Shown here in pieces: positions 5,680 to 61,905 of a stretch of DNA of 64,000 nt. The notes under the pieces are model-generated. The model did no database searches, was not told the DNA's origin, and saw nothing but the letters and a program-made list of their open reading frames with translations. This stretch comes from Cloeon dipterum (taxonomy: Eukaryota; Arthropoda; Insecta; Ephemeroptera; Baetidae): contig NC_088787.1 of the NCBI RefSeq assembly GCF_949628265.1, positions 18,156,501 through 18,220,500 of the forward strand. The letters run 5' to 3'. How positions within the stretch are numbered: position 1 is the stretch's first letter; each line of letters starts with the position of its first letter. Both the position numbers and the translations under genes were made by a program.

Positions 5680-8600
5680 ATGATCTCGACTGTAACGAGA
5701 AACTTCAAAGGCAGCAAAGCCGCCGACTATGAGGATTTGGATGCCAACTACAATAGCAGAAATCCTCAAGACATCATCGAGATGCAGTCTCCTGTGCCCG
5801 TCGTGCCAGATGGTATTTCCTTCACGTATCCTCTTAAAGTAACAACCGTTGCAATTTTTAAATGAGCCAGTTTCGCTATTAATATGCAAGATAAAAGAGT
5901 TTCCCGTTATAAATTTTATTTTTTGTGTCTTATATAAACTCTATTGCACTGTGAGGAAAAGGCGCGACCAAACTTTGTTGATTGGGTGGAGAACACTATA
6001 GCATTTAAATCATATTCCAGAGTCGTACACGGTGGGTGCGGCGGTCAACGCGTTTGGCTTCGGTAAGTTCCAGGTCAAGCTGTCGCTGTTCACGGGTCTG
6101 TGCTGGATGGCCGACAGCATGGAGATGACCATCCTCAGCATCCTGTCGCCGGCCCTGCACTGCGACTGGAAAATCACGCAATACCAGCAGGCGCTCACAA
6201 CCACGGTACGTAAGCTGGCGCTCGAGAATAAATATGCAACACCCTCGACACCAATGTCCCGCGGGTTGCATAACGATCCATTCATTCGCTCTCCCGATAT
6301 AGAACAGTGGCAGGTTAAGTAACCGAAATAAATACAATAGCAGTTGTTATGAATGGGCAGTCTAACGCGCTTTCATTGAAAATTGTTTCCTTAGTGGAAT
6401 TGTTATATAAATTTCATGAACTTCCCCATTAAATCCATCTCTAATAATACATTTATTTTCTTCTTTGATCTGATATTTGAAAATAAAAATTCTAAAGACA
6501 CAAGATCAGAATGTATACTGTGGACCATTCCGAAAAAGAAATTTTCAGTCTGATACAGTAGCAAATATTTTTGGTTCCCCGCAGGTGGTCTTTTTAGGGA
6601 TGATGATAAGCTCGACCTTTTGGGGCGTGCTGAGTGACAAGTACGGACGAAAGCAGGCGTTGACTCTGTGCTCCGTGCTGCTGTTTTACTTCGCTCTCAT
6701 GAGCTCCTTCGCGCCTTCTTTTGGCTGGATTCTGTTCCTTAGGGGTCTCGTCGGGTTCGCCATCGGTTGCGTCCCTCAATCGTAAGTTGCCATAAATATA
6801 TACGAGCATCGATAAAAAATATTTGTAATTTAATTCTTATTCCAGAGTCACTCTCTATGCTGAATTTCTACCCACCAAGCAGAGGGCGAAATGCGTTGTT
6901 CTATTAGACGTGAGTAATTTTTTCAAATTCAAGCCTTTAAGTGACTGAGATTTTCAGTGTTTCTGGGCGCTCGGCGCCTGCTTCGAAGTGCTGCTGGCGC
7001 TGTTTGTGATGCCCACTCTGGGCTGGAAGTGGCTGTTGGGCCTCTCGACGATTCCGCTGTTTGCATTCGCCTGTGCTTGCCCTGTAAGTCGATCCTTTTC
7101 CTCATGACTCCGGGTTTTCCGTGACGCGATCAATCAAATGTCTTGTTCTGGTCTCGTTGAAAGTTTAACGCGGTTCCCCAGAGATGGGAAATGTGTGCTA
7201 ATCAATTATTATCTTTTGACAAGACACACTGAAGAATTAATTAGCTACTGAGCAAGAAGTACATTAAGTTGAATTAAAAATCCCTGATTAATTTAACCGC
7301 AAACACTGCAATTATTGTAATGATTATTTAAGCTAATTTACTATTTAAAATTATCTATTTATTTTTACCCTTTTCAGGCATGAATGGAAATTGATATTGG
7401 CTTGCGTTGCTCTTTTTGAATTTGAGGTCTAATTAACATTTCATGTGATTGTGTTTTAAGCCATACGTACAAATTTCCAGAAAAATTTACCCCTGGGAAA
7501 TCTTTTCTTGCATCTCATTAGATAATAAGATTTTGTTAAAATATTCATGCAGTGGCTGCCCGAGAGTGCTCGGTACCACGTGGCCAGCGGACAGACAGAG
7601 CAAGCGGAGGCCACCCTGCAGAAGATCGCGCGTGACAACGGCAAACCTATGCTGGTCGGCCGCCTGGTGCTGGAGGATGGCCAGATGTCCATCAGAGGAA
7701 GGGTCAGAGATCTGCTGAGCACGGAGTATAGGAAAACGTCACTCTTGCTCTGGACAATATGGTGTGTAGTTTGAAATTGTTATTCGTTTTTAAAATGATA
7801 CTTATCTTTGGCCTCAAATTCCAAGAAATCAGTTCACATACGTGAATATTTTTCCTCGGGATTATTTAAACCTATTTAAAAGCCTCTAAATATTTCATAA
7901 TGATCAGGATCGCGACGGCATTTTGCTACTACGGCGTCGTGCTGATGACGACTGAGCTGTTCGAAAACAAAGCACCGTGTCCTGGTCCCGGGCCGTGCGT
8001 CTCTGAGTGCAAGCGACTCTCGTCCTCGGACTACATGGACCTGCTGTGGACCACGCTGGCCGAGTTCCCCGGAATTTTCGCCACCATTTTTGTGATAGAG
8101 CGTTTTGGGCGGAAGAAGACGATTGCAGCCCAGTTTCTAGTGTACACCGTCTCCATGGCCATTCTTCATCTCAGCATGGACAAGTAAAAATGATTTTTTC
8201 TAATTTGTGATAATTATATTAATAAATTTCAGCCGAGCATACTTGACCGGCATGCTCTTCATCTCGCGTGGAATCGTGGCTGGAATCTTCCAAGCTGCCT
8301 ATGTTTATACCCCTGAGGTTTGTTGTTTTTATTATTTTAAGCGATAAATTATGAGACAAAAAATATAATTTAAATTTTATATTTTCCCTGAAGACAAAAG
8401 GCTGAAATGCACTGAATAAATGATTTCAACAAGATTTCAGAATATTAAGAGAAACACTCCCCAAAATAAGTAGCAATCATTAAATCTTGAAAAATCTTTA
8501 GTTAACTGAAAAATAATGTTAAAATTGCTAGAGTTGAACTATTAAAATTTTCATTTCAGGTTTACCCAACTCCGCTTCGGGCCGTGGGGGTGGGCACCTG

Positions 8601-8793
8601 CAGCGCGATGGCCCGCTTGGGGGCCATGGTGACCCCGTACGTGGCACAGGTGCTGCTGAAGACGTCCACCACTTGGGCTGTGTCCATTTACGCGGCGACA
8701 GCAGTGGTCGCGGCAATGGCCGCCCTCTGCCTCCCGTACGAAACCAAGGGCGCCGAAATGAAAGAGACAATGGTCAGAAACCAGCACAAGTGA
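5680..8793 (+). CDS. Svop: Synaptic vesicle 2-related protein SVOP (MFS transporter)
   Basis: A 12-helix major facilitator carrier of the SV2/SVOP branch, found on synaptic vesicle membranes in animals; its substrate is not settled. Nine coding exons (5680-5812, 6021-6205, 6585-6781, 6846-6909, 6958-7083, 7553-7761, 7908-8183, 8233-8317, 8560-8793) give 502 residues, close to vertebrate SVOP. Visible hallmarks: [20 protein letters not shown] leading into the first membrane helix, the MFS motif [10 protein letters not shown] (about 120-129), WLPESARY after helix 6, [15 protein letters not shown] and FGRKKT in the C half, [12 protein letters not shown] and LPYETKG at the end. The start follows CAAA and sits 24 nt after an acceptor. 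Everything looks intact, including acidic residues in helix 1 (ADSMEM). Confidence 0.93.
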
Positions 8794-9288: not shown

Positions 9289-11826
9289 ATGAAGCAGTGT
9301 GTGATTTTGACCGTGGCTTGGCTCCTCATGTTTCTCCTTTTGCTCTACGTTACGGGACCGCTTTTGAAGGTGCAGATTGAGAAGAACGAAAAATTGGAGC
9401 AAAACCTGCGCGTCATCTCTAAGCGATTGTCCCACGCATTCCGACAGTTGGAAAAACTCAGAAGACATTACGAAGAGTTAAAAAAGATGATTAAGTATAT
9501 ACTTTAGATCAATGCTCTGTCTTTTTGAAATTAGCTTAAACGTACGCAGAGTCGGCTTTTCGTATCAAAATAAAACCATCAGGACTTTGTTGGAGAGAGA
9601 GAAGGCAATGAACGAAGGGTCGGCCATAAAGGCTTGCAACCCTGGTAAATTTATAAATTCTTTGCCTTTTGAAAATTTAACCAAGGATAATCCAGTGCCC
9701 CCGAGGATTGAGTACGAGCAGACGAGACGAATGATCCATTCTGCAGTGCGGGACATGTGGTCGTATTTGGAAACCAGGTTTAAATCAATATTGGATACCC
9801 ATGAGAGCGAGAACAAGTCTTTCCCCGAGGAGGTGAAAAGTCTGCTTGTGGGATCAGCGGGACGGATTCAGTAAAACCACGATTAGAAGCAAACTCTATT
9901 CACACAAAAAAATTCAACAGGTTTATTTTGAAGTACCTGGACAAACTGCCAAGCGTGGACGGTCACGCGAGTTGGCGCCAGTCTGAAGCCAGATATTTGA
10001 GCACGATCATCCAAAATAGAATCAAACTGCTGCAAAATCCACCGAATTGTGCGGCGGCGAAATATCTGATGTGCCAATTCAGTTCGGTAATTTTGCGACA
10101 GATTTGAGAAAGTTCCGAATTAAATTTCACGCAAGGATTGCAACCGTCTCGCTTGCCGGCTGGAAAGGGTGACTGCGTGCCTAGCTGAGGCGTACCGAAT
10201 GCTCAGAACGCTCGTCATCGACGACAACGCGTGGAACACGAATTTCCTGCCGCTCAGTCAAGTGTGCAGTGATATTCAAAATAAGGAAGAATATGTTGGC
10301 GTCCCTTGGCCTGGTATGGACTATATTTCATTTCTAAAAAATATGAGGTATACAATATGGCTATATTAGACAAGGATTAGTTAATGGTTTTATACTGTAT
10401 ATTAGTGTTATATCGAAAAATTGGCATTTTTTATTTTAATAAACTGATTCAGTCCATTATCTTTTGATTTAAATAAATTTTACAGAGAAATTTTAAATTA
10501 ATAGGAATGACAACAATATGAAATTTATGATTTAACATATTATTTACAGCTTTTTCAACAAAAACCGAGTTTAAAAATGTTCCATAGTTAACATAATGTT
10601 AAAATAAAATTTTTGTAAATAAGAGATTTATCCTAAATTCGATATTTAACTGAATTTTAAAATTTTTGAGAACTTTCCACAAATTTAAACTTATGAAAAA
10701 GTCACACGCTCAGGGTCTCCCCACGACATGAGGATCGACCTGAGCCAGGATGAAAACGTGTTCAGCTGGAAAGTTGTTCCATACGATTTTTCCCAGCATT
10801 TGAACAGACTCAGAGGTGATCCCCTTCTCTGGTGGAGAGGACAACTTTACTCGTACTTGATGCGGCCTCTGCCAACCATGAACAATCTTTACCACCGCGT
10901 CAAAGAAAGGATCAAATTTTATCGAAATCCGATAATTGGGTAAATTAGAGCGTCTGTTGAAACTTAACGTGCTAAACGCATGAAAATAGAATTTGCGTGG
11001 ACGATGAAGGCCTGTTGGACGACCTGATCAGCGTCGTTGAGCACCGATACTCGCAGTTGGAAATGAAGGATATTTCGCTGCAGAGGCGAATTTTCATTTC
11101 AAGCAATAACTGGGACATACCACAAAAGATTAAAAAGATGTAGACATTCCATTAATGTTGTAATGTTGAGAAAAATCCAATGAAAATCATCTAGATATCC
11201 GCACATCGACACCATGTATGTTTCCGAGGAATTAATGATAGAGGTTGGAGCTGAAGAATTTGCAGAAGATCGGTTTGAGTTTCAGAAGGATATACTTGAT
11301 GTCCACTTCTTGCAAAACACCGAGTTCATAATATCTGCAAGCCAAAGTAACAAGGTGTGAAAGAATTAAATGTGACGAGACGATAAGCAAAAAATATAAT
11401 TTCAGCTTTGTCACATTGCTCTGGCACTGAAAATGAACCACACAGACGCTCAAATGGTGTCTCTAGGGAACATCAGCGCCTCCGACCACAAAAGATATTT
11501 GGACTATATGTGCATCATTAAACATGTAGCTCAAAATGAAGAGGAAATAGACCTCAACCTAGGAGATTCAGTGATAAACGTGGAAAAATTGCCAAACGGC
11601 TACTCAAAGGTAGGATTTGAATGAAAATTGAAGTCAGCGATTGATTAATTTAAAAAAATAGGGCGTCAATAAGGTCAGCCGACGGGCAGGATTGTTTCCC
11701 TCATACAAAGTTGCTGGCCTCACTAGATACAAAAAATTTTACGACTTTAAAGGGACTGTTTCAACAACCAAGATAACCACTAAAGCAGAGCAAACAACAG
11801 AGGAGGTGTATGAATATGAGGACTAA
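9289..11826 (+). CDS. FUT8-like protein (GT23 fold plus SH3) with substituted donor-binding motif
   Basis: Full-length relative of alpha-1,6-fucosyltransferase FUT8, the Golgi enzyme that adds core fucose to N-glycans. Nine exons (9289-9494, 9550-9870, 9921-10086, 10136-10313, 10714-10939, 10990-11139, 11195-11354, 11406-11609, 11662-11826) give 591 residues; human FUT8 has 575. Order: two-residue tail and one type II membrane helix (3-25), coiled coil (30-70), long helical stem, GT-B core with LLQNP and CNRLACR, GDPLLWW...YLMRP, ILDVHFL, then an SH3-like end NGYSKGVN...GLFPSYKV. Where FUT8 has GVHVRRTDK this protein has GICVDDEGL (about 366-374), so both donor-site arginines are Asp. ATDDP is SSNNW, and the segment holding the FUT8 catalytic Glu is about eight residues shorter. 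No alternative frame restores the motif. The donor at 10314 was chosen because 10348 does not stay in frame. An upstream in-frame ATG at 9184 is possible. It is probably inactive as a fucosyltransferase (inference). Confidence 0.85.
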
Positions 11827-11878: not shown

Positions 11879-11915
11879 TTTATTTTTAAGAATCATTAAA
11901 TACGCGGAATTTATT
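11879..11915. terminator. Interleaved poly(A) signals of the FUT8-like gene (+) and Emg1 (-)
   Basis: Minus-strand AATAAA at 11884-11879 and at 11915-11910 suit Emg1. A plus-strand ATTAAA at 11895-11900 suits the FUT8-like gene. The two 3' ends therefore probably overlap. Confidence 0.45.
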
Positions 11916-12055: not shown

Positions 12056-13096
12056 TTAAATCACTCCCCAGCCCTCTTCAAAAGCCGAACACAACTTGGA
12101 GCAAGTTAATGCAGCCGATAAGGGGTAGTTACTGATTGAAATGTCCTCCTCAGTGTAACTCGTTGTTACCTGAAGCAAATTTCAGGCCGATTGAGCATAT
12201 AAAAGATATATTTAAAGCGGTCCTACCTTTCCATTGGCCATTGCTCCCACGACGATGGCGATAGGTTCTTCTGAAGGAACAAACTCCCGAGGGCTCTGAA
12301 CCTTCTCTGCGGAGAATGACATCAGAAGCTTTCGACAGCCTACTGGCAAGTGACTTTCTACAGGGTTCTTGATCACTTTAATAAGCTTAGGACCATTATT
12401 GGCTCGCACACTAAATCGGTGAAGAAGCTGAACTGAAATTTGAAAATAGAATCATGAATTATCATAATACTTTATCTTCGTTAAGTACATACCCATTAGT
12501 CCTGCAAACCTTTTGTAGGTCCTTGGAATTCGAGTCTGAGGGTTCAATTCAATCAAAACATTCCTCTCAGTGTGGATGTAGACCTAAAATATCAGACATA
12601 AAATCAGAAATGAAAATTATGCGGCTGCAGAAATAAAGGCTGAAGTCACTGACCTGGAGTAATCCAGCACGGTTCAATGGGCTGTCGAAAAGCATGAGTA
12701 AACACTGGTGCGTGATGTCTGGCCTGCAAGAGCCGCTCTCCCGATTCATCTTCTTCAATACGTGGGCATGGTCGTCGCTGTTCATCAGCTCGAAAACACT
12801 TCCCACCTGCGACAAAACAATGCTCGTCAATCATGAATCATAGAAAAAATTATTTCAGCTTTACAAACCTTGACAGACTCAAGCTGGGCTCTTTCAAGGA
12901 TGACAATAAGACGTTTGTCCTGGTTGGTGATGTGCTTGGCCAGCCCCAGGTGTTTCGCAGGCAAATCTGTTTCATATGCGTCCTCATCCTTCGCCTTGCG
13001 TTTCTTGCCCAATTTGTTTAGGCTCAACTGCTTCGGCGGCAAACCCACCCCGTTCTGGCCACCAGAACTATTCTTAGGCTTACGCATCTTGCCCAT
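12056..13096 (-). CDS. Emg1: Ribosome biogenesis pseudouridine N1-methyltransferase NEP1/EMG1
   Basis: SPOUT-class enzyme that methylates the hypermodified pseudouridine of 18S rRNA during small-subunit assembly in the nucleolus. Five exons on the minus strand (13096-12869, 12806-12654, 12583-12493, 12432-12227, 12169-12056) give 263 residues; human EMG1 has 244. The Lys-rich N-terminal tail (GKKRKAK) is followed by [86 protein letters not shown] (the cofactor loop of the knot) and a C-terminal [14 protein letters not shown]; all match the family closely. It looks intact. It converges on the FUT8-like gene (stop codons 229 bp apart) and diverges from Acads. Confidence 0.94.
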
Positions 13097-50409: not shown

Positions 50410-53371
50410 ATGTCGGATAACAGCAAGTTGAACTGCGCTGTTGGTGTAGACCTCAGGAAACTGATTGATGAATCAAAGGTGCTTGTTGTTGGAGCCGGAG
50501 GAATTGGTTGTGAGCTCCTGAAAAATCTTGTGTTGGCTGGATTTAACAAGATTGACCTGGTTAGTTGAAGTTTTATTTTTACTCTCTTCACTGTGCTTGT
50601 AAATACATATCCATTTATGTAAGCGATTGTTTTTCAAACTTACCGCTTATAGTGTATGCATACATTACTTTTAAAATGTTTAATTTGCAGATTGATCTGG
50701 ACACTATTGATGTCAGCAACTTAAACAGACAATTCCTCTTTCAACGATGCCATGTTGGAAAGTCGAAAGCGCTGTCAGCAAAGGAAAGTGCTTTGCGCTT
50801 CAATCCAAGAGCCACAATTAATGCCCATCATGATAGCATCACAGAGTAAGCATTATCTGCGATTTATTTACAATAAGCAAGTCTAAATTTGCTATTTTCA
50901 TTCGCAGAAGTAGGTACGGAGTCAACTACTTTAAAGAGTTCAATCTTGTGCTGAACGCCCTCGACAACCGAGCGGCCCGTTCACATGTCAATCGCATGTG
51001 TCTGGCTGCTGGAATCCCTCTAGTTGAGAGTGGAACTGCTGGCTACAATGGGCAAGTAGAGGTTTGTCACTCCCCAAAATTAACTTGGGAATGTGACTGA
51101 CGGGAATTATATAATTCTATTCAGGTTATCATGAAAGGCAAGACTGAGTGCTACGAATGTCAGCCAAAACAAGCAACAAAGACCTTTCCTGGTTGTACAA
51201 TCAGAAACACACCTTCTGAGCCTATCCACTGCATTGTTTGGGCTAAGCATCTTTTCAAGTACTTTACTTAAAACTATTAAATAATTGCGAATGAAACTTA
51301 ATTTAATTATTTACAACAGCCAATTTTTCGGGGTTGAAGACCCTGATGAAGACGTCTCTCCAGACACAGCAGATCCTGAAGCAGTTGGTTAGAGTCATCA
51401 TTATTTTTTCCTGTAATTTTCACTAATAGGGGAATTTTCAGGGGACGCTGGGAGCACTGCCCTGGACGCTGCATCTCAAGAGAATGGCAACATAGAGCGC
51501 GTGTCAACTAGGCAGTGGGCCAAGACAAATAGTTACAACGCTGAAAAGCTGTTCCAAAAGCTTTTCAAGGATGACATCCAGTATTTGCTCAGCATGTCCA
51601 AACTTTGGGAGAAAAGGAAGGCGCCTGTGCCTCTTAACTGGGGCGAACTGCCAAATGAAGGCATTTATTCATCAAATTATTTGAGAAACAAATCAGACTA
51701 AATTTCGTAATTAGTCGCTGGTAGCAGCAAGGAAGACTCGAGCCGCACCCTGAAGGACCAGATTGTCTGGAGCATCGCACAGTGCGGCCAAGTCTTCGAG
51801 GAGAGTGTCCAGGCGTTGAGGAAGAGGGTAGAAACCACGCAAGAAGACTTGGTCTGGGACAAAGATGACGAGGAGTGTCTGAACTTTGTTGTTGCCTGCG
51901 CTAACATCAGATCGCACATATTTGGAATTTCTTGCCACAGCAAATTTGATATCAAAGGTAAAGAACAGCTGGAATTTAAATTAACTCCTTTATTATTCCT
52001 ATTATTTTCTGATTAGGGAAGATAAAATGAAAACAAAGAGCTATACTTTTGGCCTGCATATTATCTTGCATTGACTTTAAGTCAGGTAATAATTAAATAT
52101 ATTCTAAAAAATGCTTCATAATTTATTTATTGTAAATTTGTCAATTTATTGTAAGAGGACTGAAGCTTCCAAAAATGTGTCATGGGAAATCAGGGTTGTC
52201 AAGAAAGCAAGGCCAAAAACGCACATTTAGTTTTGTAATTTCTTGGAAATATTTTTTCATTTGATTTTGTTATTTCTTTTCTCAACAGCTGGAAAGAGAT
52301 GAAATTAGCTAAAATCTGCTTAGATTGCAGAAAAGGATTGTTTACTAATAAAAACCATTTTGCTGTCAAAATATTTTTTCATTATTTTTTAAATCAAATA
52401 TTGAGTATTTTTGCGCATGAAAACAGTTTAAACCGGAGATGAAATATAAAAAATGGGGTTTGAAAGAAAATGCAAACCTTGAGGGAATATTTTATTATTA
52501 TTACATAACCATCTTGTTTTTCTAAAAAAAATTAATTAAAACTCCTATGTTTCAGCCATGGCTGGCAATATCATTCCCGCTATTGCCACCACAAACGCTG
52601 TCATCGCTGGCATGATAGTGCTGCGAGCCTTCCAGGTTCTGCAGCAGCAGTTCGACAAATGCAAAACTGTCTACCTTCAGAGCACCGTGAATCCAAGAGG
52701 GCTCAATATTGTACCAGAGGCTGACCTGATACCTCCCAACAAATCATGCTACGTTTGCTCTGAAAAACCACAAGTTCACTTGTACATCAACACGGAGACA
52801 AGCAAAATCTGCAACCTGGAGGAGATCCTGAAAACCAGCCTACACATGGTCGCGCCAGATGTCATGCACGAGAGCAACGTGGTAATTTCAAGCGAGGAAG
52901 GAGAGCTAGACAATGGGCAGATGACCCTCAAAGAGGTGGGAATCGTGGATGGGGCTCTGCTCAAATGCGACGACTACCTGCAGAACTATGAGCTCAGTTT
53001 GATCATTTACCATTGGTAAGGTTTATTATTTGGAAAATTATTTCAATTAAATGATTTTTCCCAAACAGGGAACCCAAAAAAGATGAGCCAGCTTTCAAAA
53101 TAGTTGCCAATCCTGATGAACTGAAGCCCAAGGAAGAGGATGAAAAAGGTAATTTACTAGTTTACGGGGTGTCCTCCTTGTGGATTGTAACTGTGCTCAT
53201 CTAGATGGAGTGAAAGAATCTGATGATGAGGGCATTGTTGAAGTGGAGGTTGATCAACAAGAAGTGGCCAAGGAGACTCCTCCACGAAAGAGGAAACTCT
53301 CTGATGTTGCTGGCGAGAGCAGCAAGAAACTGCGTTGCAGTGAACCACAGGACGACATCATCGTTTTGTAG
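50410..53371 (+). CDS. Uba2: SUMO-activating enzyme subunit 2 (UBA2/SAE2)
   Basis: Catalytic half of the SUMO E1: adenylates SUMO with SAE1, forms a thioester, and passes SUMO to Ubc9; nuclear. Ten exons (50410-50559, 50691-50845, 50908-51061, 51125-51258, 51320-51387, 51442-51660, 51715-51957, 52556-53015, 53069-53148, 53205-53371) give 609 residues; human has 640. Visible: nucleotide loop [48 protein letters not shown], zinc Cys pair CYEC, catalytic Cys in [26 protein letters not shown], second Cys pair CYVC, a ubiquitin-like fold ([20 protein letters not shown]) and a basic tail RKRKLSD ending DDIIVL. The intron at 51661 begins with GC, not GT. Intact. Confidence 0.94.
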
Positions 53372-53690: not shown

Positions 53691-56251
53691 TTATCCGAGC
53701 TCGGCCACAATGGTGTTCAGCTCGGCTTGAACGGCCATTGTCTTGCCCTGCTGCTTTTCCATGCTGTCCTTGAGTTTATCTACGGTCGCCTTGAGTAGGT
53801 AGTTGCCCTTTTTGATCATCGCCAGTCTGTTCTCGTGCATTTTGTTCTTTTTTGACAACGCCTCGACGCGGAATGGAATCGGATCGGACATGTCTTCCGG
53901 CTCGCTCTCGGCCTCGCTCTCAGTCTCGGTCTCCGATTCCGACTCGCTGCTCTCCTCTTCATCCTCCTCCTCTTCTTCCTCCTCCTCCTCTTTAGTCATC
54001 TTGCTCACCTCCCGCTGCAGAGCAGAGAACCTCTTCTGCTCCATCCTCAACGCCTTCTGCAGGTTGTTCACTTGGAACCTGAGGGCCCGTTTCTCCTCCA
54101 ACGCGTTGATCTGCTTCTCCTTCAAAGACCGCATCTTAGACTGCTGCATCCGCAGCTCCCGCATCTCCTGCGTCTGCTTGGCTGTGTCCTCGTCTTCTTC
54201 CTCCTCCTCCTCCTCCGTCTCGGTTTCCTCTTCCTCCTCAGTTTCCTCCTCCTCCTCTTCCTCTTCAGGACTCTCCTCCTTTTCAGCCTCTTTTCTCGAT
54301 CCAGTCCTCTGCAGGTCGATGGTCTGCGTGCCCGAATGCACCGTCTCGGGCACCGTTCCTCCCGTCTTCTTCTCCAGCACCAGGCACCGGTGCTGCGCGT
54401 CCTCCAGCTGGGCTTGCGTCATGCCCAGCTGCAGTTGGCTCTGCTGCGCCAGCGATTCCTGCTTGGCCGCATCGGCTTTGGCGGCCTCCAACTCGCGCTG
54501 CAGCTGCGCCACCACTGGGTTTTCCCCAGCCGACGAGGGAGCCTGCACCATTCCGGCCATTTGTTTTTTCAGCTTGGCCAGCTCCTCCATTAGGCGTGCG
54601 TTTTCCGCTCTCAGTCTCTCTTTCTCGGCAATTTCGGTTTGCAGCATTTGCTTGGTCGACTGCAGGTCATCACGAACTTTGTCGATGTCATCCAACTCGT
54701 CTTCTGAGCTGACAGGCTCGACTTTTTTAAACTGCTGCTCCTCTATGGTCAGTTGCCTTCGGAATTTGCGCAGACCTGCCAAGAAAAAATGTTAAAATTT
54801 GGTCTCTTTGGCAGTGTAATTTGACAAAATACCTTGCAAATTTGGCCTGCTCCTGTCGTTACAGTCCACGTTTTTCAACCTGATACCTCTCTGAATTTGA
54901 TTCAACAGCATCACGTGTATATTACTGTGGCTACGTTCAGACTCATAAATGAACTGCAACGGGGGAAAAGCGTGAATTGATTGAAAACTAATAAACGGCA
55001 AGAATAGCTCACCTTTCCCTTGGCCTTCACTTTGGGGATCAGCGGTTGGCTACGATCGTTAGTTTCTACGTGATTTAGTCTGACGCCACTCTCAACCTCT
55101 TTCATCATGTCGATCCAGTCTGGTCTTCGACGAGGTCGACTACGCAGCGATTCTAGTTTAACTTTTTTGACCTCATTCAGTGGTTTTTGACTTTGTCCTG
55201 AAATCCAATTTATTAATGCTAAATAAATGATAATTTTTAACTCCGACCTGGCATGGCTGGTGGTGGGGGTGGTGCTGGAGGCATTGAGGGTGGTGGCGGA
55301 GGCGGCGGCATTGGCGACGATTTAGGAGGTGCCTGTTTCTCTGGTTCTTTTTTCTGCACTTTTGGCTTCTCTTGCTCTTTTGGAGGCTTCGGTGCTTCAG
55401 GAGGCTTTCCCGTTTCTTTAGGGGGTGGTGGCACTATTGCTTGGGGTTTTTCTGCTTCCTTGAGCTTTTCTTCCCTCTTAATAGCTATAACAGTTTCTTT
55501 TTGCGGAGCAGATTTTGTTTGCTGCTTTTCTGGGGAACTTTTGGCTGGGGTAGAAGCGCTTTCTTTAGAATTTCCATTTTCCTGAAACAGGGAATATTTT
55601 TAATTGGGTTGTACTGATACATTTTATCTAGAGAAAAATAGCCATTTATTATCTTTTAATTTATGTATATTCATTTATTGCATTTACCTGAACTGTTGTC
55701 TGACGTTTAATCGGAGATGGTTTCTGCTGCACAGGTTTAGCTTCATTAAGTTCACTTTTCCGCACACTCTCCTTATTTTCTGCTGACTTTTTCTCACTAG
55801 CCGCCTTGGAATTTTTTTCTTCGTTGACCGCATTCTTTCTCTGAACATCCCCATTGTCCTCGCTCTGCTTAGGCTTTGTGACCTTTCGACTAGACACTTG
55901 AATCGGCGTGGACTGTTCTTTCTTCGGCGTGGTCAAGCTGGGATCCTTCGGTGGTGCTGGCAAAGAAGGGGGCTTCGCGAGCAACGAGTTGATATTATTG
56001 TTGCTGGGCATAGTAGGGATGATCTCGATTTTGCTTTGTTTTCGAGGCTGCTGCGGTGACGGCTCCGGTTTCGCATCGACTACCGGTTCAGCGTCATCTT
56101 TGTTTATAGTCTGTTGCCGCCTCCAGGGTGGAACCTGGCTGTTCACTTGTGGGATGCTGTCCTGCCGCACCCATGGCGGTCGGAACGGACCATTCTGGTT
56201 GATAGCATTGCTATTTGCCTTAAATACTGGCATCTGCAAATTAAAGGCCAT
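53691..56251 (-). CDS. sals: Sarcomere length short-like actin-binding protein (Pro-rich, two WH2 motifs, coiled coil)
   Basis: In Drosophila, SALS is a WH2 protein that lengthens thin filaments from their pointed ends. Exons on the minus strand (56251-55688, 55581-55248, 55197-55013, 54953-54833, 54775-53691) give 762 residues. Order: PPWVR and PPWRRQ repeats near the N-terminus, a Lys/Pro-rich region, a formin-binding type PMPPPPPPPSMPPAPPPPP tract (about 285-300), two WH2-like units DMMKEVESGVRLNHVETNDR and LLNQIQRGIRLKNVDCNDR (about 325-400), then a long coiled coil broken by two glutamate runs. The start is uncertain: ATG at 56251 precedes a TTTAATTTGCAG acceptor-like site, so translation could begin at ATG 56233 or continue from an upstream exon. 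The name rests on architecture, not alignment. Confidence 0.75.
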
Positions 56252-59593: not shown

Positions 59594-61887
59594 TTACTTA
59601 ATCCTACTTCTAGGCACCCTCTTTAAATCGTCGTCGTTGTTGCTGGGATAGTTGTACGGCGCTTCTGTGTGGTGGTTTGGCGTATTCTCCACCTGCCTCG
59701 CCGTGTATTCCTGTTAAACTCAGTCAGCGTGAGATGTTAGCGAGGAATGTTAATCAAAACACACTTACTCTTGTTTCATTCTGAGCTGCGCTCCTTTGCT
59801 CGTAGGTCGGCGCACTCCTTTCCTCCGGTTGCCGGAAGGAACTCACTTTGCTTTTCGCGTTCCACTGCAACTTTGTCCCCACAACCTGGAAACATCATAT
59901 ATTTAAACTTTGCTTAATTTTTCATATAAATGGGAATCAGAACCTTTTTAACCCCACCAGTCGGTTGGTAGTGATCGTTGAAGGTGGATACTCGCGGAGT
60001 GATGTTTCTATAGTCCGTTGTCCTAGCAACATTTTCAGTTCGGGGTTGCCGGAAAGAACTTCGTGAACTCGTGGAGCGAACCATAGAACCTACAAATCAA
60101 GTATTAAAATATTCATTATTTTAATAAATAAAAAATTATACCGTGTCTATCCTCGCCAGCGGATTCGTAATTCTCTATCGAACTGGCAAAGTCTTTCCCA
60201 TCGCCTCCTGATATTTATGATTTAATAAGCAAACGTGCTTTTTGTTAATTTAATAAACTTTACTTGGAGTCATCGCTTTTCTCTGCGCAATGCCATCTGT
60301 GCTCTTCGCCCTTCTCACTCTAGCCTTGTCTTGGTCTCTGGGCGTAGATATTACGCTTCCAAATGCCATGGATGGGCGAGTGCTTCTCTGATCCCTCCGC
60401 AAATACCTTTTTAAAATATAATCAATACGAGATATATAAAATAATAGCCTCTGCTTGAAATCCGCAGTGCCACCGCAAATATTTAATGGGAGATTGACGG
60501 ATAAGGATTCATGCTCTGCTTTCGTGCTCTATAATACCAATAAAAGCCCAGCCATAAAGTTTATGATAATAAAGTCAGTACCTGGGTGTTTCGCTCTCGA
60601 TCTCTGCAAACTTGACCCTGAACTCGTCCCCTCGAGGCGTCATTGCTTTTCTGACGGGCGTCACACCCGTTGGCGGTATGTACCGTCCTGTTTTGGGACA
60701 GTAAGTTCCCTTTGGTTTCCGGGGAGTTGGGGTAGCCGCGTCCTGAGGCGGCGGCGGATGCGGCTGAGGTTGCGCTCTTGGATCAGGTGGGTCCGGAACG
60801 AACCTGCCTGTTTTTGGACACCACGTGCCAGGGGTCTTAGATGAAACTCGCGAAACGGGCCTCTCTTGTTGAAAAGTTAGATCTGTTGGACGCAACTTCT
60901 GTGGCGCCTGTGGAGTGGCTTCTCTGGACATTTGCTGTCCAGTTACAGGGGGATTTGTTGGTCTCTCGAATTGACGCTGTTGAAGATCCTGTAAATTATT
61001 GTTAAATCAGGAGAAATTTTATAAAATTAGATAAATTTTCTCACTTTGAAGTCAGGTACTTGAGGTCTGGTGAGCGTTTCGTCCACATCCTTTGTAGTAT
61101 CAACTGGTATCTTATTGTTAGCGACTGGCGTGGATGGAACCGAAGGAAGCTTCCCTGTGACCGTAATGGTGACCTCTTTGGCCACCGGTTTTCCGCTTGG
61201 CATGACAGGTGTGGCCTCGGCCATCGGCTGCATTTGTCGAACTGATGAGGTCCTCATCATTCCTGCAGTGGCCCTCTCTGGCTTTTCTTGTCCCGGTTGA
61301 GCCGCGACTTGAGGCTGAGCTGCTGAAGGCTGGTACTGGTTTGGTGGCGGCGCTTGGTACTGGGGGGTTTGTGGTTGGTACTGGTTCGATGGGGTTGTTT
61401 GATAGTTTGAGGATTGGTACTGGGTCGAGGGTTGATACTGGGTTGCTGGAGGTTGATTTTGGTTCAGCGGAGTTGCGGCAGGTTGGTGTTGGGCTGTCGT
61501 GACTGGTTGGTATTGAGTTGACAAAGGAGGGTCTTTGGAGGAAGGGACCTGGTATTGTGCAGATACAGGAGCTTTATAATCATTGGTTGAAGGGTATTTA
61601 TATTCATTTGTAGGTGGTGCTCTATAATCTGGTGTAGCAGTTTTGAAATCATTTGTCGAAGGAGTTTTGTAATCGTTGGATGGCTGGTACTGTGCTGAGG
61701 ATGGAGGCTGATGCTGCGATTGGGTTTGGTACTGATTAGAAGATCGTTGTTGCGAGGAAAGTGTCGAGGCGGTGAAAGCGTTTGATTCAGGAGCTTGTTG
61801 TGATATTCTGTTCCTCATCGAGTCGGGTTTGATTGAGGACATGTCACTGCCGGTGAATCCACTCATCGGTTGGTTAGAGTCCGACAT
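59594..61887 (-). CDS. Unrecognised disordered Gln/Pro/Tyr-rich protein with twin CPKTGR motifs
   Basis: Seven coding exons on the minus strand (61887-61045, 60988-60582, 60406-60264, 60207-60142, 60089-59944, 59885-59769, 59710-59594) give 612 residues. Residues 50-190 are a low-complexity array of YQ-P units (NQYQPQ, TQYQPS, AQYQPS, NDYKTP/NDYKAP) typical of disordered, Tyr-spaced proteins. Mid-protein lie two near-identical units, GTWCPKTGRFVPD and GTYCPKTGRYIPP, about 35 residues apart, with VRKAMTP and QRKAMTP after them, then SSFRQPRTE and SSFRQPEE repeats. No enzyme or membrane segment. The acceptor at 61905 shows an upstream noncoding exon. Position beside a sals-like muscle gene hints at a cytoskeletal role, but this is weak inference. 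Confidence 0.75.
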
Positions 61888-61905
61888 GTTGAAGTAATTT
61901 TGAGT

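What the first reader, a model, noticed from the sequence alone, without database searches (positions are those of the whole stretch)
9289..11826. Full-length FUT8 relative in which the donor-binding Arg-Arg is Asp-Asp: a probable pseudo-fucosyltransferase
Flanking blocks align almost without gaps to FUT8 (GDPLLWW...RP...NPIIG before, ILDVHFL and NGYSKGVN...GLFPSYKV after), so the position of the HxRRxDK motif is clear. It reads CVDDEGL. In FUT8 this Arg pair is required for GDP-fucose use (established for R365/R366 of the human enzyme). ATDDP is also changed and the loop with the catalytic Glu is shortened, while the membrane anchor, coiled-coil stem, GT-B core and SH3 domain remain and the gene is intact over nine exons. 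That pattern suggests selection for a non-catalytic or altered Golgi role, for example a dimerisation partner or a lectin-like binder.
Basis: partly seen in the sequence, partly recalled or inferred. Interest (0 to 1): 0.85.

Follow-up and report, generated by a model that had tools for sequence, protein, structure and literature searches.

The report
Fucosyltransferase copy with dismantled active site
This animal carries, besides a normal copy of the sugar-adding enzyme FUT8, an old second copy that keeps the frame, membrane anchor and most shape-holding cysteines but has lost nearly every residue known to touch the two substrates, so it is most likely a non-enzymatic relative, perhaps a partner of the real enzyme.

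Summary
Window 9289-11826 encodes an intact 574-aa FUT8 relative (Pfam FUT8_N_cat E 4.8e-55). I read ten exons, or nine if the 51-nt intron 2 is retained. The genome also holds a canonical FUT8 with HIRRTDK on another contig, with ten exons and the same nine intron phases. No third copy was found.

'Arg-Arg is Asp-Asp' depends on the alignment: in 9 of 10, Arg-Arg-Thr is gapped rather than replaced. In all ten the pair is absent and the loop nine residues shorter. The loss is wider than reported: 3 of 18 donor and 0 of 13 acceptor residues kept, against 104 of 263 other human=canonical positions and 7 of 8 cysteines. Third codon positions are near saturation while second positions are 56% identical, so the protein was long under selection; an old pseudogene is excluded.

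Best reading: a FUT8-derived pseudoenzyme kept as a Golgi protein, perhaps a heteromeric regulator of canonical FUT8; that step is inferred on weak evidence. A lectin for the usual N-glycan is disfavoured. Orthologues, expression and structure were not tested.

The parts
9289..9494 (+). Exon 1: short cytoplasmic end, hydrophobic membrane anchor, stem helix
   Evidence: following intron phase 2 as in canonical FUT8
9550..9644 (+). Exon 2: stem
   Evidence: following intron 9645-9695 phase 1 as in canonical, 5 alignment columns apart in a poorly aligned stretch
9696..9870 (+). Exon 3: coiled-coil region
   Evidence: following intron at the same column and phase as canonical
9921..10086 (+). Exon 4: coiled coil and start of the Cys-rich region (166 nt, as canonical exon 4)
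10136..10313 (+). Exon 5: Cys-rich region and N-terminal lobe; glycine-rich stretch and Tyr250 region lost, four cysteines kept
10714..10939 (+). Exon 6: includes GDPLLWW, ends NPIIG
10990..11139 (+). Exon 7: ICVDDEGL in place of motif I, loop nine residues shorter, SSNNW in place of ATDDP
11195..11354 (+). Exon 8: ILDVHFL with Asp453 kept; Ser469 not kept in 9 of 10 alignments
11406..11609 (+). Exon 9: end of catalytic fold and first part of SH3 domain; acceptor exosite residues lost
11662..11826 (+). Exon 10: rest of SH3 domain (GLFPSYKV), C-terminal tail, stop
10940..10989 (+). Intron 6 (50 nt), directly before exon 7; stops in all three frames, no room for a missed motif I
11895..11900 (+). 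ATTAAA, possible polyadenylation signal after the stop
   Evidence: pattern only

Best explanation
The gene is an old DNA-level duplicate of FUT8 that kept its introns and became a pseudoenzyme. Shown: intact spliced frame (model), homology over the length of FUT8, canonical FUT8 elsewhere in the genome, constraint on the protein, loss of nearly all donor- and acceptor-site residues with 7 of 8 fold cysteines kept. Inferred from sequence: a type II Golgi membrane protein that cannot core-fucosylate (my odds about 0.88). Inferred with more doubt: it acts by protein contacts, most likely joining canonical FUT8 through stem helix and coiled coil and so changing that enzyme's stability, place or activity, in the manner of MGAT4D (GnT1IP-L) on MGAT1 or COSMC on C1GALT1 (about 0.4).
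For: Same nine intron phases as canonical FUT8, eight of nine introns in the same alignment column. Codon positions 1/2/3 identical in 44.5/56.0/28.4% of 546 aligned codons against 25.6/27.3/25.6% at random; 7 of 37 shared fourfold sites equal; position 2 above position 3 in all six segments. Neutral substitution leaves 48 of 2000 simulated copies open at 0.05 changes per site, 1 of 2000 at 0.1, 0 of 2000 at each of five higher values. Kept: donor 3 of 18, acceptor 0 of 13, union 3 of 29 against 104 of 263 elsewhere, Fisher p 0.0018; cysteines 7 of 8; over ten alignments p 0.0018 to 0.021. Of eight residues listed as implicated in FUT8 activity (PMC4204859 passage; shifted by me to human numbers) two are kept. 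Stem helix 1, needed for human FUT8 multimers (PMC9709245 passages), holds one of three stretches tied for best conserved, 13 of 23. Schistosome alpha6-FucTs, strongly diverged too, all keep the Arg pair (PMC3655985 section 14).
Against: No expression, orthologue, structure or protein data. Stem-helix excess is weak (p 0.044, chosen after the fact) and vanishes when only human=canonical positions are counted (6 of 11 against 101 of 277); coiled coil and SH3 are kept about as well (20 of 42 each). Helix conservation could serve Golgi placement or homomers. Asp453 is kept, and Asp368 in 9 of 10 alignments. Cys465 is lost. The SH3 hit is under Pfam's cut-off (24.1 against 30 bits).
Confidence: 0.4

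Rival explanations
1. A retained pseudoenzyme with a role unrelated to canonical FUT8, such as a Golgi or shed scaffold for other proteins.
For: Fold, anchor and SH3 part kept, C-terminal tail unlike the canonical one; no direct evidence ties it to FUT8.
Against: Stem helix resembles that of canonical FUT8, weak evidence.
Confidence: 0.26
2. A glycosyltransferase with a rebuilt active site: another donor or acceptor, with the acidic loop doing something new.
For: Constraint over the whole protein, catalytic lobes included; Asp453 kept; new acidic pair in the loop.
Against: Basic residues like Arg365 and Lys369 stabilise the diphosphate in metal-free GT-B enzymes (PMC7033129 Results); both are gone, as are the glycine-rich stretch, Tyr250 and motif II.
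Confidence: 0.12
3. A gene that lost its function very recently and has not yet decayed, or is no longer expressed.
For: Fast divergence, loss of the enzyme's defining residues; no expression data.
Against: Frame and nine introns intact, 7 of 8 cysteines kept; neutral copies at 0.05 changes per site stay open in 48 of 2000 cases even without indels, so only a very recent death fits.
Confidence: 0.12
4. A glycan-binding (lectin-like) protein that binds N-glycans without transferring fucose.
For: SH3 part and fold kept; a different glycan is not excluded; some human contacts are by backbone and need no side-chain identity.
Against: 0 of 13 published N-glycan contact positions identical (1 of 13 in one of ten alignments), with His535, Asp494, Asp495 and Tyr498 all changed.
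Confidence: 0.08
5. Gene-model or assembly error: a missed exon supplies HxRRxDK.
For: No RNA-seq was available.
Against: No HxRRxD in any frame of the 64 kb; intron 6 has stops in all frames; exon 7 keeps the canonical boundaries and phases; changed active-site residues lie in exons 4 to 9.
Confidence: 0.02

Closest known systems
FUT8, alpha-1,6-fucosyltransferase (GT23), human enzyme and the canonical copy in this genome
   Same: Length, anchor, stem, coiled coil, Cys-rich region, catalytic region and SH3 end align throughout; intron positions shared with the canonical copy
   Different: Motif I, motif II, donor and acceptor residues lost; 162 of 546 positions identical to the canonical copy, which itself matches human at 292 of 525
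MGAT4D / GnT1IP-L
   Same: Way of working proposed: a glycosyltransferase homologue whose only activity identified is to inhibit another glycosyltransferase, with heteromers in the Golgi (PMC4572887 passages)
   Different: Homologous to family GT54, other target; likeness of kind, not of sequence
COSMC / C1GALT1C1
   Same: A glycosyltransferase homologue that is the chaperone of an active transferase (PMC4572887 discussion passage)
   Different: Essential for its client's activity; no such dependence shown here
Schistosoma mansoni alpha6-FucT family (FucTH to FucTM)
   Same: Multiplied, strongly diverged FUT8 relatives in an invertebrate (PMC3655985)
   Different: All keep the two motif I arginines, according to that paper
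[quoted passage not shown]
   Same: Two fut8 genes in one genome (PMC4204859 section 6)
   Different: Counted there among highly conserved sequences; no motif loss described in the parts read

Membership tests
FUT8 family (GT23) by descent | Homology to FUT8 N-terminal and catalytic domains | tested here: met
   PF19745 E 4.8e-55, 187.7 bits over cut-off 27.6, residues 9-462
FUT8 family (GT23) by descent | Intron positions and phases of a FUT8 gene | tested here: met
   9 of 9 phases, 8 of 9 exact columns
FUT8 family (GT23) by descent | Eight cysteines of the four disulfides | tested here: inconclusive
   7 of 8 kept, Cys465 lost; the Sf9 enzyme, which is active, lacks Cys472 of the same pair (PMC4204859 passage)
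FUT8 family (GT23) by descent | C-terminal SH3 domain | tested here: inconclusive
   SH3_9 E 3.2e-5 but 24.1 bits under the cut-off of 30; the alignment to human FUT8 runs through it
FUT8 family (GT23) by descent | N-terminal type II membrane anchor | tested here: inconclusive
   Hydrophobic stretch at residues 5-26 read from the sequence, aligned with the canonical one; no topology program was run
Active alpha-1,6-fucosyltransferase | Motif I HxRRxDK with Arg365/Arg366 | tested here: not met
   Pair absent in all ten alignments
Active alpha-1,6-fucosyltransferase | Catalytic base Glu373 and Lys369 | tested here: not met
   Glu373 gapped in all ten alignments; Lys369 is Asp in nine and gapped in one
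Active alpha-1,6-fucosyltransferase | N-glycan contact residues of human FUT8 | tested here: not met
   0 of 13 identical, 1 of 13 in one alignment
Active alpha-1,6-fucosyltransferase | Core fucosylation in an assay | not testable with these tools
   needs recombinant protein
Regulatory pseudo-glycosyltransferase (works like MGAT4D or COSMC) | Binding to, and effect on, an active enzyme | not testable with these tools
   only indirect: stem helix and presence of canonical FUT8

The most novel reading that the evidence does not exclude
A dedicated regulatory pseudo-FUT8: from the core-fucosylation enzyme an animal evolved a non-catalytic subunit that pairs with canonical FUT8 and sets how much core fucose is made. 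As far as my paper searches show no such case is described for this family.
Probability: 0.35. Interest if true: 0.75.

Novelty: new variant of a known kind. Interest (0 to 1): 0.5.

Why it matters
[quoted passage not shown] An old, constrained copy without either substrate site breaks that picture and is a natural experiment on what the stem, coiled coil and SH3 domain of FUT8 do apart from catalysis. If it regulates FUT8, it would add to the few glycosyltransferase homologues known to control an active enzyme (few: recalled; two examples in PMC4572887).

Tried and rejected
Missed exon: rejected. Retrocopy: rejected, nine introns kept. Duplicated block with shared neighbours: 225 translated frames from about 9 kb on each side of the canonical gene gave no hit at 1e-3 in about 9 kb on each side of the window gene. 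Third copy: none found (the tool scores best candidates only). Outside the two FUT8 loci the only hits (three at E 0.08 to 1.7, one at E 0.012) match the SH3 part.

Gained N-glycosylation: four sequons in the paralogue, none in the canonical copy or in the 529 human residues used, but shuffles of the paralogue give 3.2 on average (P of four or more 0.40), so not counted as evidence. Date of the duplication: 40 residues shared with canonical only and 26 with human only, in 487 columns, p 0.11, not decisive.

Species: not identified. Paper searches by assembly and chromosome size and on mayfly genomes gave nothing usable. A COX1 search found one sub-cut-off fragment. An arthropod is inferred: canonical exons 4, 5, 7 and 8 (1-55-0, 0-62-1, 1-58-2, 1-50-0) have sizes published for arthropods (exons 7 and 8 also chordates), while exon 6 (2-89-2) does not match the published 2-78-2.

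Not done: structure prediction (the tool asks for proteins that the DNA gives letter for letter, and this one is spliced); dN/dS between species (no related animal genomes held); scans of the viral, prokaryote-genome, phage and plasmid collections (unsuited to an animal gene).

Full report
What is there. Window 9289-11826 on the + strand encodes a 574-residue protein through ten exons; the nine introns are GT-AG, eight of 49-55 nt and one of 400 nt. Pfam finds FUT8_N_cat over residues 9-462 at E 4.8e-55 (187.7 bits, cut-off 27.6) and SH3_9 at E 3.2e-5, under its cut-off (24.1 against 30 bits). The eight best solved relatives are alpha-(1,6)-fucosyltransferase chains (best E 1.1e-46).

The canonical copy. 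The genome (190,111,064 bases, 10 contigs) holds one more FUT8 gene, on contig C4 from 14,973,103. My spliced model has 594 residues with the intact motif HIRRTDKVGTE and scores 687.2 bits with FUT8_N_cat. Ten exons, phases 2,1,2,0,1,2,2,0,0, are the same in both genes; eight of nine introns fall in the same alignment column and one lies five columns off in a poorly aligned stretch. So the window gene is a DNA-level duplicate that kept its introns. Searches with the Pfam family and both proteins found no third copy, though a very divergent one could be missed.

Divergence and constraint. Identities: human-canonical 292 of 525, canonical-paralogue 162 of 546, human-paralogue 133 of 487. The two genes agree at 44.5, 56.0 and 28.4% of first, second and third codon positions, against 25.6, 27.3 and 25.6% expected from composition; 7 of 37 shared fourfold-degenerate sites are equal. 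Second exceeds third in each of six segments and overall (306 against 155 of 546, p 2e-20). Silent sites are near saturation while the protein is constrained. In a substitution-only simulation from the canonical sequence 48 of 2000 copies stay open at 0.05 changes per site, 1 of 2000 at 0.1 and none at the five higher values. An old pseudogene is excluded; a very recent death is not.

The active site. Donor and acceptor residues come from the human FUT8-GDP-G0 structure paper (PMC7033129, Results read); Asp368 and Arg441 from PMC12930516 (passages); Asp409 from PMC4204859 (passage; Sf9 numbers shifted by 22); Arg366 from the finding, and Asp410 from recall. Of 20 donor positions 18 are identical in human and canonical, and the paralogue keeps 3 (Cys222, Asp368, Asp453). 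Of 13 acceptor positions it keeps none, although Asp295 reads Glu and some contacts are by backbone. Two positions are in both lists; together 3 of 29 are kept against 104 of 263 other human=canonical positions (Fisher p 0.0018), and 7 of 8 cysteines. Over ten alignments, not independent of each other, donor is 3 or 4 of 18, acceptor 0 or 1 of 13, cysteines 6 or 7 of 8 and p 0.0018 to 0.021, the weakest being the most gap-averse.

Arg-Arg to Asp-Asp. In 9 of 10 alignments R365-R366-T367 is gapped and DD lies opposite D368-K369; with a gap-opening cost of 20 DD lies opposite RR. HMMER also gaps there. If only one gap is allowed, DD opposite RR scores 42 against 38 for deletion of the pair; with two gaps the deletion reading scores 58 before gap costs. 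The safe statement is that the pair and Glu373 are gone and the loop is nine residues shorter. The window has no HxRRxD in any frame, and intron 6 has stops in all frames.

How it may work. Human FUT8 multimers need stem helix 1, and the part up to the stem suffices to form them (PMC9709245 passages). In the paralogue the helix holds one of three stretches tied for best kept (13 of 23; the others are the end of the SH3 part and the GDP-WW stretch). Over canonical residues 35-69, 15 of 32 aligned positions are identical against 147 of 514 elsewhere (p 0.044, chosen after the fact). Counted only at human=canonical positions there is no clear excess: 6 of 11 in the helix, 6 of 15 in the stem, 101 of 277 from residue 106 on. 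So a heteromer with canonical FUT8 is a proposal with weak support. Precedents for such a way of working are MGAT4D, which inhibits MGAT1 and forms heteromers with it, and COSMC (PMC4572887 passages). The lectin reading loses ground because the N-glycan contacts are changed; a new-specificity enzyme because the basic residues for the diphosphate are gone.

Comparison with print. PMC4204859 (sections 6 and 7 read, other passages; [quoted passage not shown] PMC3655985 (section 14 part 1 and passages) reports six diverged alpha6-FucTs in Schistosoma mansoni, all with the two arginines. Multiplication in the family is thus known; loss of the pair is not in what I read. Searches for an inactive FUT8 paralogue listed one paper and three, of which PMC8042171 and PMC7157712 were seen in the listing only; on pseudo-glycosyltransferases listed one. 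The library lacks most subscription papers, so this does not prove absence.

Limits. Species unknown, no expression data, no orthologues, no structure model. Beyond the loss of the enzyme's known residues, function is inference. The odds of the whole explanation were set to 0.4, since it cannot exceed its weakest step.

Noticed in passing
window 8506-8793 (+): Open frame of a Major Facilitator Superfamily transporter ending about 500 nt upstream of the FUT8 paralogue (MFS_1 E 3.2e-5, under its cut-off).
   Followed up: no
window 12212-12448 (-): Exon of an EMG1/NEP1 methyltransferase gene on the opposite strand, tail to tail with the FUT8 paralogue (E 2.9e-15).
   Followed up: no
window 52540-53016 (+): Exon with a ubiquitin/SUMO-activating enzyme ubiquitin-like domain (UAE_UbL E 6.5e-18) and a weak ThiF end, likely a UBA2-type gene (the gene name is recalled).
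   Followed up: no
window 53691-54791 (-): Open frame of 366 aa with Glu-rich runs and a coiled-coil look, no Pfam match up to E 0.01; the 54001-56000 block has AT skew -0.329.
   Followed up: no
window 61027-61905 (-): Gln/Pro-rich open frame of 292 aa with repeated YQ-P units, no Pfam match up to E 0.01.
   Followed up: no
L019 (G000:C2:8963136-8963273): Short COX1-like piece with two stops, under the family cut-off, possibly a nuclear copy of mitochondrial DNA.
   Followed up: no
window 11469-11477 (+), protein residue N474: An N-glycosylation sequon (NIS) lies at the position of acceptor residue Asp495; four sequons in all, no more than chance.
   Followed up: partly
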